Assembly (NCBI GenBank): GCA_003054695.1
Contig: QAZA01000039.1
Span: 372,001 to 436,000, forward strand
Reading direction: 5' to 3'
From: Verrucomicrobia bacterium LW23
GTDB taxonomy: Bacteria > Verrucomicrobiota > Verrucomicrobiia > Methylacidiphilales > UBA1321
Length of the DNA stretch: 64,000 nt
Position numbers and translations under genes: made by a program. Shown here piece by piece: positions 16,572 to 23,727 of the stretch; positions within the stretch are counted from its first letter, which is position 1; each line of letters opens with the position of its first letter. The notes below the pieces were generated by a model. That model searched no databases. It was not told where the DNA came from and saw only the letters and a program-made list of their open reading frames with translations.

Positions 16572-19500
16572 TTAGCTGTGCGCGGGTGCCAGTTCGCGAT
16601 CGCCTTTTGTGCTGGGTTCGGGCCTGGGCGTGGGTTCGTCGGAGGCTTCGGGGGCGTTCTTGTCGGTGAGGCTGGTTTCGGGGTGACGCTTGTCGTTACG
16701 ATGGTCGCCTCCGTCTCCATCGCCGTCATCGCCGTGGCCGTGTTTGCCGGGGCCTGAGGAGCCGCCTTCGTCTTTGCTGCGGCCCCAGCCGAGCCTCATT
16801 ACCGTTACGTAAAAGACGGGGGTGAGGAACAGGCCGAAGAGGGTGACGCCGATCATGCCGGAGAAGACGGCGATGCCCATGGCCTGGCGCATTTCCGCAC
16901 CGGCGCCGGAGGCGATGACCAGTGGGTAGACGCCGGCGATGAACGCGATGGAGGTCATCAGAATGGGGCGCAGGCGAATGCGGCACGCCTCGATGGTGGC
17001 TTGCACCAGCGGCAGTTTCTCCTCCTGCACTTTGTGTTGCGCAAACTCCACGATGAGGATCGCGTTTTTGCACGCCAGGCCGACGAGCACGATCAGGCCG
17101 ATTTGCGTGAAGATGTTGTTATCGCCACCCGTGTACCACACGCCTCCAATCGCAAACAGCAGGCACATGGGCACGATAAGGATGATGCTCAGCGGTACGC
17201 GGAAGCTCTCGTACTGCGCGGCCAGCACAAGAAACACCAGCAGGATGCACAGCGGGTAGACATACACCGCCGTGTTGCCGGCCAAAATGCGCTGATAGGT
17301 CAGGTCCGTCCACTCCATGCCCATGCCGCGTGGCAGCACCGTGGCGGCAATCTTCTCCATGTCCGCCTCCGCCTGGCCGCTGCTGAAGCCCGGCGCGGGG
17401 CCGCCGCTGATCTCCGCCGCCGGGTAGCCGTTGTAGCGCATGGCGCGCTCCGGGCCGTAACCGGGGGTGACTTGCACCAGCGTGCCCAGGGGAACCATCT
17501 GGCCTTCGGCGTTGCGGGTTTTCAGCCGCGCAATCTGCTCGGGCTGCTCGCGGAACTTTGCGTCGGCCTGCGCCAGCACCTGGAAGGTGCGGCCAAAGCG
17601 GTTAAAGTCGTTAACGTACATGGAGCCCAGGTAAATCTGCAGCGTCTCAAACAGATTGCGCAGCGGCACGCCCATGGTCTTTGCCTTTTCGCGATCGATC
17701 TTCGCGTCCAGCTGCGGCACGTTTACCGTGTAGGTGGTAAAGGGCCAGCTTTGGCCGGGGGTGGCCGCGGCTTTGGCAATCATCTCGTTGGTGGACGTAA
17801 ACATCTGGTCCTGGCCCAGTTCCGCGCGATCCTGCACGTAGAGCTTGAATCCGCCCGTGGTGCCCAGGCCGTTGACGGGCGGGGGCGGGACGACGAGCAC
17901 AAAACCTTCCTGAATCTCCGCGTAGCGCTTGTTCAGCTCGGCGGTGATTTCATTACCGCTCTGCCCCTTCTTGCCTTTGCGGTGCTCAAAGCTGTCCAGG
18001 TTAAAGAACACGATGCCGGAGTTGGGCGACACGGTGAAGCCGTTGACGCTGAGGCCGGGGAAGGCGATGGCCTTGGTAACGCCGGGCACGCCAAGGCCAA
18101 TCTCGCTCATCTTCTTGATGACCTCGCGCGTGCGGTCCAGCGAGGCGCCGTCGGGAAGCTGCGTAAAGGCAATGAGATACTGCTTATCCTGCGGCGGCAC
18201 AAAGCCCGTGGGCACCTGCTGAAAGCTCCAGCCGGTCAGCACCAGCAGGCCGCCGTACAGCACCAGCGAGGCCGCGCTGTAGCGCACCACGGTGGAGACG
18301 CCGGCCGCGTATTTGTCGCCGCTCCACTCAAAAAAGCGGTTGAAGGGGCGGAAGAACCAGCCCAGGCACAGGTCGATAATGCGCGCGAACCAGTCCTTGG
18401 GCGCGTGGTGGCTTTGCAGCAGCAGGGCGCTCAGCGCGGGGCTCAGCGTCAGCGAGTTAAACGCGGAGATAACCGTGCTGATGGCGATGGTTACCGCAAA
18501 CTGTTTGTAGAACTGCCCGGTAAGGCCGCTGATGAACGCCGTGGGGATAAACACCGCGCACAGCACCAGGGCGGTGGCGATAATCGGGCCGGTCACCTCG
18601 TTCATCGCGCGCCGCGTGGCCTCGTAGGGCTCGTAGCCCAGGCCAATGTTGCGCTCCACGTTCTCCACGACGACGATCGCGTCATCCACAACAATACCGA
18701 TGGCCAGCACCAGGCCAAAGAGTGACAGTGCGTTAATGCTGAAGCCGAGCAGGTACATGAAAGCAAATGTGCCGACCAGCGAGACGGGCACCGCCGCCAG
18801 CGGGATGATCGACGCGCGCCACGTTTGCAGGAAGATCACCACCACGATAACGACCAGCACCACCGCCTCCACAAGCGTGTGCACCACCGCCTCGATGGAT
18901 GCCTCGACGAACACCGTCGGGTCGTAGTCGATGCTGTAGACGAGGTCCTCGGGGAAGTTCTTGGCCAGCTCGTCCATCTTGGCGCGGATATCGTGCGACA
19001 GCTGCAGCGCGTTGGCGCCGGGCAGCTGGAAGACGGGGATGGCAACCGACGGCTTGTTGTCCAGCAGCGATTGCAGCGCGTAGGTGCTGGCGCCCAGCTG
19101 CAGGCGGGCCACGTCCTTAAGCAGCACCTTCTGGCCGGTCTCGCCGGTTTTGACAACGATATTGCCGAATTCCTCCTCCGTAACCAGGCGGCCTTTGGTG
19201 TTGATAAGCAGGTCCAGCGCCACCGGCTTGCTCACCGGCTGCTGCCCCACGCCGCCGGCGGCGATCTGCACATTTTGCTCGCGCACGGCGGCCACGATGT
19301 CGCTGGCGGTAAGGCCGCGCGCGGCAATCTTGTCAGGGTCCAGCCAGATGCGCATGGCGTAGTCGCCGGAGCCGAAGATCTGCACCGCGCCGGCGCCGGG
19401 GATGCGCGCGAGCACGTCTTTAATCTGCAGCGTGGCATAGTTGCGCAGGTACACTTCGTCGTACCGGCCGTTGGGGGAGGTCAGCTGCACCAGCAGGGTA

Positions 19501-19913
19501 ATGTCGGGCGACTGCTTGTTGGTGACGACGCCGAGCGTGCGCACCTCCTCCGGCAGCTTGGGCAGCGCCTGCGACACGCGGTTTTGCACCTGCACCTGCG
19601 CCTTGTCGATGTCGGTGCCCAGCTTGAAGGTGACGGTCAGTGTCATCACCCCGTCGCTGGTGGCCTGGGAGAACATGTAGATCGAGTTCTCCACACCATT
19701 GATGACCTGCTCCAGCGGTGCCGACACCGTCTCCGCAATGGTTTTAGGGCTGGCCCCCGGGTAGTTGGCCGTAACGACAACAGTAGGCGGCACCACCTCC
19801 GGATACTCCGCAATCGGCAGCTGAAACATGGAGATCAGCCCGATCATGAAGATCACAATCGAAAGCACGGCGGCAAAAACCGGCCGGCTGATGAAGAAGT
19901 GGGAGAAGTTCAT
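16572..19913 (-). CDS. RND efflux pump, inner-membrane permease (AcrB/MexB type)
   Basis: A 1113-residue hydrophobe/amphiphile exporter of the HAE1 group. It begins MNFSHFFISRPVFA, the classic RND start, followed by the porter domain with ANYPGAS. The membrane motif GLVLAIGIVVDDAIVVVENV in helix 4 carries the two adjacent proton-relay Asp residues. Two repeats of six helices plus a large periplasmic loop each are visible. The C-terminus has an unusual charged Gly/Asp/His-rich tail of about 70 residues after the last helix. ATG at 19913 was chosen over the open upstream frame because that part is encoded by an inverted repeat (20008-20112). It is the last gene of a three-gene set; no outer-membrane TolC-type gene is nearby. 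Confidence 0.95.
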   Translation of the reverse strand: MNFSHFFISRPVFAAVLSIVIFMIGLISMFQLPIAEYPEVVPPTVVVTANYPGASPKTIAETVSAPLEQVINGVENSIYMFSQATSDGVMTLTVTFKLGTDIDKAQVQVQNRVSQALPKLPEEVRTLGVVTNKQSPDITLLVQLTSPNGRYDEVYLRNYATLQIKDVLARIPGAGAVQIFGSGDYAMRIWLDPDKIAARGLTASDIVAAVREQNVQIAAGGVGQQPVSKPVALDLLINTKGRLVTEEEFGNIVVKTGETGQKVLLKDVARLQLGASTYALQSLLDNKPSVAIPVFQLPGANALQLSHDIRAKMDELAKNFPEDLVYSIDYDPTVFVEASIEAVVHTLVEAVVLVVIVVVIFLQTWRASIIPLAAVPVSLVGTFAFMYLLGFSINALSLFGLVLAIGIVVDDAIVVVENVERNIGLGYEPYEATRRAMNEVTGPIIATALVLCAVFIPTAFISGLTGQFYKQFAVTIAISTVISAFNSLTLSPALSALLLQSHHAPKDWFARIIDLCLGWFFRPFNRFFEWSGDKYAAGVSTVVRYSAASLVLYGGLLVLTGWSFQQVPTGFVPPQDKQYLIAFTQLPDGASLDRTREVIKKMSEIGLGVPGVTKAIAFPGLSVNGFTVSPNSGIVFFNLDSFEHRKGKKGQSGNEITAELNKRYAEIQEGFVLVVPPPPVNGLGTTGGFKLYVQDRAELGQDQMFTSTNEMIAKAAATPGQSWPFTTYTVNVPQLDAKIDREKAKTMGVPLRNLFETLQIYLGSMYVNDFNRFGRTFQVLAQADAKFREQPEQIARLKTRNAEGQMVPLGTLVQVTPGYGPERAMRYNGYPAAEISGGPAPGFSSGQAEADMEKIAATVLPRGMGMEWTDLTYQRILAGNTAVYVYPLCILLVFLVLAAQYESFRVPLSIILIVPMCLLFAIGGVWYTGGDNNIFTQIGLIVLVGLACKNAILIVEFAQHKVQEEKLPLVQATIEACRIRLRPILMTSIAFIAGVYPLVIASGAGAEMRQAMGIAVFSGMIGVTLFGLFLTPVFYVTVMRLGWGRSKDEGGSSGPGKHGHGDDGDGDGGDHRNDKRHPETSLTDKNAPEASDEPTPRPEPSTKGDRELAPAHS

Positions 19914-20007
19914 AGGAGGTTGGTGGCGGGGGGACGGGGAGGCGAGAGGAGACGGAAGGAGATGGGCTATGGAAGGAAAGGGGAGGTGGGGGCTGCCCTC
20001 CGTCCTC

Positions 20008-20112
20008 CGCCCCTTGGTGCCCTGGTGTCTTGGTGGTGAAAATTCCCCCTCTGGAAAACTCCAGGCCCGGGGATTCCTCACCACCAAGACACCAGGGCGC
20101 CATGGGGGCGGC
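20008..20112. repeat. Imperfect inverted repeat of the ACCACCAAGACACC type
   Basis: Two arms of about 40 bases (CCCCTTGGTGCCCTGGTGTC and its inverse near 20075-20112) around a short loop. It lies between the small PN1-like gene and the RND gene and would form a strong hairpin in their transcript, so it might lower expression of the downstream pump or cause partial termination. Confidence 0.75.
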
Positions 20113-20209
20113 GGATACGAGTTTGCGATATAAACCGGTCGGTCGGTACGGAAAGTTGCCAAAGCGCGGGTATGCCCTCTCAGGCATTGCCCCGGCTATC
20201 CCGCCCCTG

Positions 20210-20749
20210 CTACTTCTCGCCCGGATTCTTCGGCATGACCTCCACGCCTTTCGCTCGCGCGGGCTCGGGGAGCTCGGGCAGCAGGGCGGGGACTTTGCCG
20301 TGGATCTGCGCGGCGGCCGCTTTGGGGTCGGCGCCGGGGGCGAGGGCGAGGGTTGTGATAACTTCGCCCTGTCCCCATTTGTCCGTGCGGCCTTTGTAGT
20401 CCACGCCGGCGTAGAGGGCGTTGAGCTTACCCTTCAGCTCCACAAGCTGGGCAAAGGAGGCGTCCGGATATTTGGCGATGATGCGCACGCGCGGCAGTTC
20501 CAGATTCGGCTCCGCCGCCTGCTGGGCTTTGCCGGCTTGCGGCCCGCCCCACAGGCTGGAGAGCTGCGGCCCGGCGTTGCCGGTGGTGTAGAGGTAGGCG
20601 CCCCAGCCCAGTGCAATCACCGCCAGAATCGCCACGCGCGACTGCCACGTGCGCCGCGTCCGCCGGCCCACATCCCCAATCACCTGCACGGGCCGGGAGG
20701 ACGAGGAAGAGGACGAAGACTGCGAGCCACGGTTGTTCTTGCGCTTCAT
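20210..20749 (-). CDS. Small one-helix protein resembling an RND porter PN1 subdomain
   Basis: A 179-residue protein: basic, Ser-rich cytoplasmic start, one transmembrane helix at about 38-55, then a periplasmic part. Residues about 85-178 line up by eye with the PN1 region of the pump encoded next door: AKYPDAS against ANYPGAS, GVD against GVE, LAPGADPKAAAAQIHGKV against a similar KLGTDIDKAQVQVQNRV segment, and LPELPEPARAKGV against LPKLPEEVRTLGV. The gene lies between the adaptor and pump genes on the same strand. I infer a free-standing PN1-like domain that may regulate or complete the pump; it is not a truncated pump since it has its own helix and linker. No named family is recognised. 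Confidence 0.75.
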   Translation of the reverse strand: MKRKNNRGSQSSSSSSSSRPVQVIGDVGRRTRRTWQSRVAILAVIALGWGAYLYTTGNAGPQLSSLWGGPQAGKAQQAAEPNLELPRVRIIAKYPDASFAQLVELKGKLNALYAGVDYKGRTDKWGQGEVITTLALAPGADPKAAAAQIHGKVPALLPELPEPARAKGVEVMPKNPGEK

Positions 20750-20888
20750 GATGCGTTGGCGATGGGAAATGCGGAGGAGCGGGGAAGTGTGCTAAGCCTC
20801 AGGTTTAAGGTTAACTGTCGCAGTTTAGGGGGAGGACGCCCGCCCTGCAAGGAGCGAGCATCCCGTTATTGCGCCGGCGCGGCCCGGC

Positions 20889-22499
20889 TCAGTTCTTCGA
20901 CGGAACGTGCGCAGGCGCAGTGTTTTGCGCCGTTTGTACGGCGGGCGCCTGCGGGTTCACTTCCATCTTGGGACGGGCGCGCTGAATGCCGTTGACCACC
21001 ACGCGCTCGCCCGCCTTAAGGCCGGTGCGGATCACCCGCTTGCCGTCCACAACAGGGCCTAGCGTTACGCCGCGGTACTCCACAATATTGCCGTCGCCCA
21101 CGGTGTAGACGAACTTTTGCGCCTGGTCGGTGCCCACGGCGGTGTCGGCCACCAGCACCGTCTCGCGGCTGTCGGTGGTCGGCACACGCACCCGGGTAAA
21201 CAGGCCGGGCACCAGCTTGCCGTCCGAGTTGGGGATGACGACGCGCAGCAGGATGGTGCTCGTGTTCGCGTCCAGGCGGTTGTCGATCGACTCCACCCAG
21301 CCCTTGTAGGGAAAGCCCTCCTGGCTGGTCAGCGCCATCTCCACGGGGATTTTCTCCTCCATCGCAGTGCCATCGGAGAGCGTCGTGGTGCGCTTGCTGT
21401 CGTTGCCGGGCGCGGCTTCGGAGCGGCTTGCGGCCTCCAGCGCCTTCAGTTTAATCAGCGTCTGCTCGTCAATGTCGACATGGACGTAGATTGGATCCAC
21501 AGATACAATGGTGGTGAGCAGAGAGGGCTCGCCGGCCTTGGCCGTGGTGCTGACGTAGTTGCCTACCGTCAGCAAAGCTCGGCTCACGCGGCCGTCGATC
21601 GGCGAGCGGATGGAGGTGAACTCCAGGTCCAGCTTCGCGGCATCCAGCAGCGCCTCAGCGGAGGCCAGTGCACTGCGCGCCTCGGAGAACGCCGTCACCA
21701 GCGTGTCCTCGGCCTCGACGCTGATAACGCGACCGTTGGCCAGCTTGTTGGCGCGCTGGGCCATGCGCTCGGCATTGGCCTGGCGGATTTTGGCGCGCTC
21801 CACGTCGGCCTGGCGCTGATCCACGATAACCTGGTAGGGGCGCGGATCGATGACAAAGAGCACATCGCCCTTCTTCACCATCTGGCCGGCGCGGAATTTC
21901 ACCTCCGTAATGTGGCCGGAGATGCGCGGCTTAACCTCCACGGCCTCAACCGCTTCGGTGCGCCCCGTAAACTCGTCCCACTCCGTCACCGGCTTGCTTT
22001 CCGCCTTGGCGACGGTGACGACCGGCGGCGCGGGTGGCGCCGTGGCGTGGCTCTCGTTGCAACCCGTAAGGCCCAGCGACGCGCCCGCAAGGACGATGGC
22101 CATCGCAAACGAGCCCAGCGGCAGCGGTACGGCCGCAAAGATAGGGGAGAGCATCCGCTGCACCGCGCCAGGGGTGGCTGAAGCAGGGGCGAGGTGCGGC
22201 CGGCCCCTGCGGGCGCGGGCGTCGGAGGGCGCCAGGCGGGCATCCAGCTCCACGGTCTCCATGTAGGCTACCACGTCCGCGTGCGAGGCGGTGCGCTCCG
22301 CTTCGGCGGCCTGCACGCGGGCGGCGGCGCGGCGCTGGGCGGCATTGGGGCGAGCGGCGGGGGCGTCTTCAATCGCGGCGACGCGGCCCGACGTGCGTGC
22401 CGGCTTGGGGGTAACGCGGCGGCCCCGGCGAACGGGGTGCGCGGCCGCGGTTGCGTCGCGATCATCATCAGCCGGCTGCGGGGAGGGGAGGTACGTCAT
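20889..22499 (-). CDS. RND efflux periplasmic adaptor (membrane fusion protein)
   Basis: AcrA/MexA-type adaptor that links pump and outer-membrane channel. The lipobox SLGLTGC near residue 147 predicts a lipoprotein. Then come the barrel-sandwich halves (EVKPRISGHITEVKF and FTSIRSPIDGRVSR), a coiled-coil hairpin between them, the beta-barrel and the membrane-proximal domain (YRGVTLGPVVDGKRVI). The frame opens with 115 Arg/Ala-rich residues before the expected signal peptide. An in-frame ATG at 22154 would give a protein starting MLSPIFAAV directly at the signal region and may be the true start. It heads the adaptor/PN1-like/pump set, beside an Rrf2 regulator on the same strand. Confidence 0.92.
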   Translation of the reverse strand: MTYLPSPQPADDDRDATAAAHPVRRGRRVTPKPARTSGRVAAIEDAPAARPNAAQRRAAARVQAAEAERTASHADVVAYMETVELDARLAPSDARARRGRPHLAPASATPGAVQRMLSPIFAAVPLPLGSFAMAIVLAGASLGLTGCNESHATAPPAPPVVTVAKAESKPVTEWDEFTGRTEAVEAVEVKPRISGHITEVKFRAGQMVKKGDVLFVIDPRPYQVIVDQRQADVERAKIRQANAERMAQRANKLANGRVISVEAEDTLVTAFSEARSALASAEALLDAAKLDLEFTSIRSPIDGRVSRALLTVGNYVSTTAKAGEPSLLTTIVSVDPIYVHVDIDEQTLIKLKALEAASRSEAAPGNDSKRTTTLSDGTAMEEKIPVEMALTSQEGFPYKGWVESIDNRLDANTSTILLRVVIPNSDGKLVPGLFTRVRVPTTDSRETVLVADTAVGTDQAQKFVYTVGDGNIVEYRGVTLGPVVDGKRVIRTGLKAGERVVVNGIQRARPKMEVNPQAPAVQTAQNTAPAHVPSKN

Positions 22500-22634: not shown

Positions 22635-23285
22635 TTATACAGCCCTTCGGCTGGAGCCGGCGCCGGCTGTTGCGGTTGCTGCTGCCCTGCGGCGAAGCCC
22701 GGCGCGCGGCGGCGCCACCTTCGCGGGTTGCTTTGATGTTGCTGCTGCGTGATGGGTTGCTGTGGCAGCTGCCTTCGGCTTCCTGGCGCGGGCTGCCGCA
22801 ACCGCGCTGCTTTGCTTGAGCGAGGCAATCGGCACCAGAGCATCGCACGAGGCGAGTTCCTCTTCGTCCGCTTCCTCGATTCCTGCCAGGATGTCCGCTA
22901 CAGAGAACGAGGCAAGTCGTTCCTCCATAGTGGCTTGCGTTTTCTCCAGGATGCCCTCCATCGCCACCTTGATGTTGCAGCTTATCGGGCACAGCGGCTG
23001 CTCCGGGTAGTTGTGGATGGCAAACGCCCTGGGCGCATCCACCGCCCTGTAGATCTCCAGCAGCGACACTCCCGCGGGCTCGCGCGTCATCCAGCACGCA
23101 CCCTTCTTACCCGTCGCCGTCTCGATCAACCCCGCCTTGCTCAGGCGGGCCAAAATGCGGCGCACAAAAGCCGGGCTCGTATTCACGCTCTCCGCCAGCA
23201 CGCTGGAGACGCAGGCGTGGCCAGGATGGTAGGCGAGGCCCGCCATAATGTGCACGGCAATGGAGAACTGATGGTTGATCGACAC
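22635..23285 (-). CDS. Rrf2-family transcriptional regulator
   Basis: A 216-residue regulator. The winged helix-turn-helix covers residues 1-80 (NHQFSIAVHIM, then SPAFVRRILARLSKAGLI), followed by the Rrf2 signature EIYRAVDAP and a region with Cys residues (LCPISCNIK) at the place where IscR/NsrR-type proteins hold a cluster; only two cysteines are close together, so cluster binding is uncertain. The tail after residue 150 is Ala/Lys/Arg-rich low complexity. The start is taken as GTG at 23285 since the domain begins there; the frame is open to 23531 but the extra part is unlike the family. It lies upstream of the efflux genes on the same strand and may control them. Confidence 0.82.
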   Translation of the reverse strand: MSINHQFSIAVHIMAGLAYHPGHACVSSVLAESVNTSPAFVRRILARLSKAGLIETATGKKGACWMTREPAGVSLLEIYRAVDAPRAFAIHNYPEQPLCPISCNIKVAMEGILEKTQATMEERLASFSVADILAGIEEADEEELASCDALVPIASLKQSSAVAAARARKPKAAATATHHAAATSKQPAKVAPPRAGLRRRAAATATAGAGSSRRAV

Positions 23286-23727
23286 AACTGTTACTTTAAA
23301 AGTTTCAGTTCGCCGCGCAAGTCCTATTTTACGAAAAATTTCCGCCCGCGCCGCCGCCCCCGCAAAATCGGCCGCCGCGCGAAGTCTGCGCCGCGCGGAA
23401 ACAGCAGGAACCCTGCCCAGGCCGCGCGCCGCAACCGCAGGTAAGTGTATCGGTCTCATAGCTCCATTCCCTGGGGGTATAGTGAGAGTCAATCGTGGCG
23501 CCAATCGCGTCATCCGCTCATTCCACCACACGCCACTGACAACTGTATGTCAGCAGCCTTTTGCCATGAACGAACGGCCCCGACCATGCAGGACATCCAC
23601 CCCATTTTTTCCACAGAATGTGCTCCGCCCACCGCATACCCGCCACGACCACCTGCTGAAAGGCAAACCGCCTTGTCCGAACGGCCAAAACGCTCCGTGA
23701 ACGGCGGAGCGGATTCCGCAACTGCAC
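23286..23727. other. Intergenic region, no gene recognised
   Basis: Lies between the 3' end of the TIR gene and the start of the Rrf2 gene, both on the minus strand. The first 60 bases are AT-rich and probably hold the Rrf2 promoter (TTGCGC and TAAAGT 16 bases apart on the minus strand). The remainder shows nothing specific. Confidence 0.35.

What the first reader, a model, noticed from the sequence alone, without database searches (positions are those of the whole stretch)
20210..20749. Stand-alone PN1-like domain encoded between RND adaptor and pump
The periplasmic part of this 179-residue one-helix protein lines up with the PN1 porter subdomain of the pump next to it over about 90 residues, including AKYPDAS/ANYPGAS, the GVD/GVE position, a G-x-D-x(3)-A-x(3)-Q segment and LP-x-LPE-x(2)-R-x(2)-GV. 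A separate PN1 copy anchored by its own helix could sit at the pump entrance or compete in trimer contacts. I recall no described RND accessory of this kind.
Basis: partly seen in the sequence, partly recalled or inferred. Interest (0 to 1): 0.7.

Follow-up and report, generated by a model that had tools for sequence, protein, structure and literature searches.

The report
Free-standing piece of a drug pump
A small membrane-anchored protein, encoded between the two parts of a bacterial drug-export pump, is clearly a separate, heavily altered copy of one building block of such pumps; it may help or tune the pump, but it has been found in only one genome and its role is untested.

Summary
The minus-strand ORF 20210-20749 (179 aa) lies between an RND adaptor and an HAE-1 RND permease. 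Residues ~78-176 are a genuine PN1 porter subdomain: profile score 30.2 bits against at most 7.9 in 2000 shuffles; PDB hits are RND pumps in PN1 register (best E 4e-6); a single-sequence AlphaFold2 model already gives beta-alpha-beta-beta-alpha-beta and retrieves AcrD/AcrB first; a PN1-guided model matches pump PN1 at Z 13-14. The ORF has one transmembrane anchor and host-like codon usage. It covers PN1 almost exactly, with no remnant of other pump parts nearby. It is the only free-standing PN1 found in this genome; the other 12 lie in full-length pumps. No ortholog was found in about 110 related pump loci or several hundred Verrucomicrobiota genomes. It is very divergent (branch 3.38 against a median 0.18) and has lost the near-invariant pore-helix residues (Gln/Gln/Asn to Ala/His/Gly), so it is an RND-derived domain but hardly able to replace PN1 at the trimer centre. 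Best reading: a lineage-specific, membrane-anchored accessory of the adjacent pump, like MmpS or AcrZ in layout. Function is inferred; a relic remains a serious rival. Nothing like it was described in the papers searched.

The parts
20210..20749 (-). Gene for the 179-aa single-pass protein (P0001)
   Evidence: Intact ORF; best coding score of six frames (0.36 against 0.17 for the best other), GC3 0.84 and synonymous codon score 0.26, like the neighbouring pump (0.27) and adaptor (0.28)
20639..20749 (-). Residues 1-37: probably cytoplasmic, Ser-rich tail, 9 K/R against 1 D/E
   Evidence: Charge count; N-in orientation is inferred from the positive-inside rule
20579..20635 (-). Residues 39-57: transmembrane anchor
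   Evidence: Hydropathy maximum 1.57; helix 23-55 in the AlphaFold2 model
20519..20578 (-). Residues 58-77: linker, longer than the short TM1-PN1 connection of RND pumps
   Evidence: Alignment A1; low pLDDT, no secondary structure
20222..20518 (-). Residues 78-176: PN1 domain (beta-alpha-beta-beta-alpha-beta)
16572..19913 (-). RND (HAE-1) permease, 1113 aa; its own PN1 is about 19506-19805
20889..22499 (-). RND periplasmic adaptor (membrane fusion protein)
20003..20115 (.). Palindromic dispersed repeat between the small gene and the permease; folds as a very strong RNA hairpin
   Evidence: About 24 matching places in the genome; -95.6 kcal/mol, z -10.6

Best explanation
The gene encodes a single-pass inner-membrane protein whose periplasmic part is a complete PN1 porter subdomain taken, long ago, from an HAE-1 RND permease (shown by sequence and predicted fold). 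It is probably made together with the adaptor and pump (inferred from gene order). The N-terminal helix would hold the domain beside the pump at the membrane surface, and a flexible linker of about 20 residues lets it reach the porter domain (inferred). The most likely action is that of an accessory subunit or modulator: the domain binds the outside of the pump's porter domain or the adaptor, perhaps through the sheet edge that PN1 normally shares with PC2, and so stabilises or tunes the assembly. It is unlikely to take PN1's own place at the trimer centre, because its pore-helix residues are gone. Shown: the domain, its boundaries, the intact ORF with native codon usage, the position between adaptor and permease. 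Inferred: expression, topology, binding and any effect on efflux.
For: PN1 homology far above shuffles and in register with PDB pumps. The single-sequence AlphaFold2 model has the PN1 order of elements and its top Foldseek hits are AcrD/AcrB. The homologous stretch matches one subdomain almost exactly, and a six-frame search of the whole adaptor-pump gap finds no other pump remnant. Codon usage like its neighbours. In a neutral-decay simulation to similar identity only about 2% of copies keep an open, in-frame reading. Glycine/proline/turn positions of the fold are kept (14 of 36 conserved columns), while pore-helix residues are lost. Accessory proteins of similar layout exist: MmpS4 has one transmembrane helix, a linker and a periplasmic domain, and stabilises the MmpL4 trimer (PMC12803245); AcrZ modulates AcrB (PMC7267776). 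PN1 and PC2 share a beta-sheet (PMC8277102).
Against: No ortholog in any genome searched, so selection on the protein cannot be measured. Very long branch, 3.38 against a median of 0.18, which fits relaxed constraint as well as a new role. 22 of 36 conserved PN1 columns are lost. The operon's close relatives, and the 57%-identical second pump in the same genome, have no such gene. A 296-bp gap with a strong hairpin separates it from the permease, so co-transcription with the pump is uncertain. No binding evidence of any kind.
Confidence: 0.45

Rival explanations
1. Non-functional or dying relic: an N-terminal fragment of a duplicated RND pump gene that kept an open frame by chance and is drifting.
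For: No orthologs; very long branch; loss of most conserved columns; a dispersed palindromic repeat sits next to it, a possible sign of local rearrangement; the antisense frame is open too, so open frames come easily in this GC-rich DNA.
Against: Neutral decay to this identity keeps the frame open in only about 2% of simulated cases, and a PN1 score this high in 5-29%; codon usage typical of real genes; no trace of the rest of the pump; domain boundaries; the length differences from PN1 are whole codons.
Confidence: 0.3
2. A repurposed PN1 fold with a role unrelated to the pump, for example a periplasmic binding or envelope protein that merely lies in this operon.
For: Loss of the pore-helix and other conserved PN1 residues; the ferredoxin-like fold is generic: an acylphosphatase appears among the Foldseek hits of the single-sequence model.
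Against: Location directly between adaptor and permease, in the same orientation; relatedness specifically to RND PN1 rather than other ferredoxin-like proteins.
Confidence: 0.15
3. A PN1 mimic that inserts into, or competes at, the PN1 trimer centre of the neighbouring pump and so inhibits or gates it.
For: True PN1 homology with the neighbouring pump; its own anchor would keep it at the membrane surface near the pump.
Against: Pore-helix residues Q106, Q110, N111 (88, 94 and 99% conserved) are replaced by A, H, G; [quoted passage not shown]
Confidence: 0.1

Closest known systems
PN1 subdomain of HAE-1 RND permeases (AcrB, AcrD, OqxB; residues ~33-137)
   Same: Sequence (E 4e-6 in PDB) and predicted fold (Z 13-14)
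   Different: Here it stands alone on its own anchor, without TM2-12, PN2, PC1/PC2 or the funnel domain, and the pore-helix signature is lost
MmpS accessory proteins of mycobacterial MmpL RND transporters (MmpS4)
   Same: Encoded beside an RND transporter; one N-terminal transmembrane helix, linker, periplasmic domain (PMC12803245)
   Different: MmpS domain is a beta-sandwich with a disulphide; this one is PN1-like and has no cysteine
AcrZ, small accessory of AcrB
   Same: Single-helix membrane partner of an RND pump (PMC7267776)
   Different: AcrZ is a small transmembrane protein acting on AcrB's membrane part and (own knowledge) is encoded away from acrAB; it has no PN1 domain

Membership tests
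RND PN1 subdomain (homology) | Sequence similarity above chance to PN1 of HAE-1 pumps | tested here: met
RND PN1 subdomain (homology) | beta-alpha-beta-beta-alpha-beta fold superposable on pump PN1 | tested here: met
   Single-sequence model, low confidence. PN1-guided model: (this model leans on PN1 sequences)
RND PN1 subdomain (as it works inside a pump) | Conserved pore-helix Gln/Gln/Asn at the trimer centre | tested here: not met
   A146, H150, G151
RND permease (ACR_tran, PF00873) | 12 transmembrane helices, two periplasmic loops, ~1000 aa | tested here: not met
   179 aa, one hydrophobic segment, no Pfam hit; so not a pump
MmpS family | Single N-terminal transmembrane helix plus periplasmic beta-sandwich beside mmpL | tested here: not met
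   The domain is alpha/beta PN1-like, not a beta-sandwich; partner is HAE-1, not MmpL
AcrZ | Small protein consisting essentially of one transmembrane helix | tested here: not met
   179 aa with a 100-residue periplasmic domain
RND pump accessory subunit (works like) | Physical association with, and effect on, the pump | not testable with these tools
   Needs experiments; only gene position and homology are available

The most novel reading that the evidence does not exclude
A dedicated, membrane-anchored PN1 subunit: a porter subdomain split from an RND pump and kept as a separate regulatory or stabilising partner of a tripartite efflux system.
Probability: 0.33. Interest if true: 0.7.

Novelty: new variant of a known kind. 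Interest (0 to 1): 0.45.

Why it matters
RND pumps normally carry all porter subdomains in one chain. A subdomain living on as a separate anchored partner would show that pump pieces can be recruited as accessories, would extend the short list of RND partners (AcrZ, MmpS), and would give a natural tool to probe which PN1 surfaces can bind a pump from outside. If it is a relic it still suggests that PN1 can persist as an independent unit.

Tried and rejected
Pfam gave no hit for the small protein at E 5; NCBIfam gave weak RND hits only (best 8.6e-5). The possible free-standing relative in G023 (255-aa frame) is the start of an ordinary pump whose frame breaks further on. The large adaptor-pump gap of L065 holds an unrelated gene, and the other gaps over 150 bp hold no PN1. 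The plasmid search found nothing. A tree cannot say which HAE-1 pump the domain came from: 102 columns, one very long branch. No sigma-70 promoter or T-run terminator pattern in the gap, which means little for this phylum. The PN1-guided AlphaFold model is not independent evidence, since PN1 sequences were its alignment. Selection could not be measured, as only one sequence exists. In the gap survey one negative extreme (-1416) is an artefact of an incomplete gene and was disregarded. The name of the source organism was not established; kinship labels and related contigs point to Verrucomicrobiota.

Full report
What is there. On the minus strand, reading adaptor - small gene - permease, the window holds a periplasmic adaptor (22499..20889), a 179-aa ORF (20749..20210) and an HAE-1 RND permease (19913..16572). 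The distance from adaptor stop to permease start is 975 bases. In 110 related loci the median distance is 14 and the largest 568, so the inserted gene is specific to this genome among those seen.

Is the resemblance real? Yes. The window's pump and the small protein align with E 3e-5 for the pair. Searching the whole genome with the small protein returns, besides itself, only the PN1 of the adjacent pump (E 0.001). Across Verrucomicrobiota genomes the significant hits are the PN1 of RND pumps, residues ~78-176 of the small protein (best E 4.5e-8). Against the PDB the best match is the AcrD periplasmic construct (E 4e-6) and the other strong hits are RND pumps at residues ~35-130. A PN1 profile built without the protein scores it 30.2 bits; the best of 2000 shuffles scores 7.9 and the reversed sequence -2.1.

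Is the fold PN1? A prediction from the single sequence is of low confidence (mean pLDDT 55) but shows helix 23-55 followed by E87-94, H99-112, E117-122, E128-135, H142-156, E169-174, the PN1 order; its top Foldseek hits are AcrD and AcrB, E 1.6e-3 upward, probability 1.00. Foldseek also uses residue identity, so this is not a pure shape test. With PN1 sequences as alignment the domain alone reaches pLDDT 73.6, TM 0.75-0.81 to pump PN1 and Z 13-14, for example 1.8 A over 92 residues with 4r86_B; that model leans on the alignment.

Is it a gene? The minus frame has the best coding score of the six, GC3 0.84 and a synonymous codon score of 0.26, equal to its neighbours. An antisense frame is also open (20030-20995 on +), as often in GC-rich DNA, but scores lower. 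A neutral decay simulation from pump PN1 down to the observed identity leaves about 2% of copies open and in frame, and 5-29% with as high a profile score. These are rough model figures; they make pure drift unlikely, not impossible.

What has changed. Of 36 columns conserved at 85% or more in pump PN1 the protein keeps 14, mostly glycines, prolines and alanines of turns and core (P81, P86, A92, Y94, P95, A97, G115, G128, G139, A145, P158, L160, P161, G168). It loses E68 (100% in pumps), N111 (99%), Q110 (94%), Q106 (88%) and K133 (98%). The Q/Q/N set lies on the helix that, by alignment with AcrB (own knowledge), is the central pore helix; the review PMC8277102 places PN1 pore helices at the trimer centre and describes a beta-sheet shared by PN1 and PC2. 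Tree placement is within the HAE-1 group, with a branch of 3.38 against a median of 0.18; the exact source is unresolved.

Where else? Nowhere found. It is the only free-standing one of 13 PN1 matches in this genome. The second pump of the same type (57% identical) has adaptor and permease adjacent. No ortholog appears in 80 public loci of related pumps, in the genomes, or in plasmids. The libraries hold one genome per species and the genus has no other member among the relatives searched, so a narrow family could be missed.

How it may work. The anchored PN1 would stand beside the pump. MmpS4 offers a precedent of layout: a helix packed on the transporter, a linker, and a periplasmic domain that helps hold the trimer (PMC12803245). 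AcrZ shows that a small membrane partner can tune an RND pump (PMC7267776). By analogy the small protein most likely docks at the outside of the porter domain or on the adaptor. This is inference. Replacement of PN1 inside the trimer is disfavoured by the lost pore-helix residues.

Context. Between the small gene and the permease lies a palindromic element with about 24 matching places in the genome, folding at -95.6 kcal/mol as RNA. It could lower read-through into the permease or be a trace of rearrangement; neither was tested.

Verdict. The interpretation as a stand-alone PN1-like domain is right; its role is open. I give 0.45 to an accessory role and 0.3 to a relic.

Noticed in passing
20003-20115: Dispersed palindromic repeat with about 24 matches in the genome, several as close inverted pairs (for example C23:57973/58050, C11:121318/121388, C26:4771/4843); a strong hairpin, possibly a REP- or MITE-like element.
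   Followed up: partly
L065:3108-3617: In a Limisphaerales MAG an unrelated 169-aa gene occupies the same adaptor-permease gap.
   Followed up: partly
20889-22499: The mechanically called adaptor ORF has about 115 extra N-terminal residues; the lipoprotein-like stretch MLSPIFAAVPLPLG...LTGC suggests a later true start.
   Followed up: no
22635-23531: ORF with an Rrf2-like winged-helix stretch directly upstream of the adaptor, a possible regulator (recognised by eye only).
   Followed up: no
20030-20995: Long antisense open frame (321 aa) over the small gene; lower coding score, probably a by-product of GC-rich codons.
   Followed up: partly
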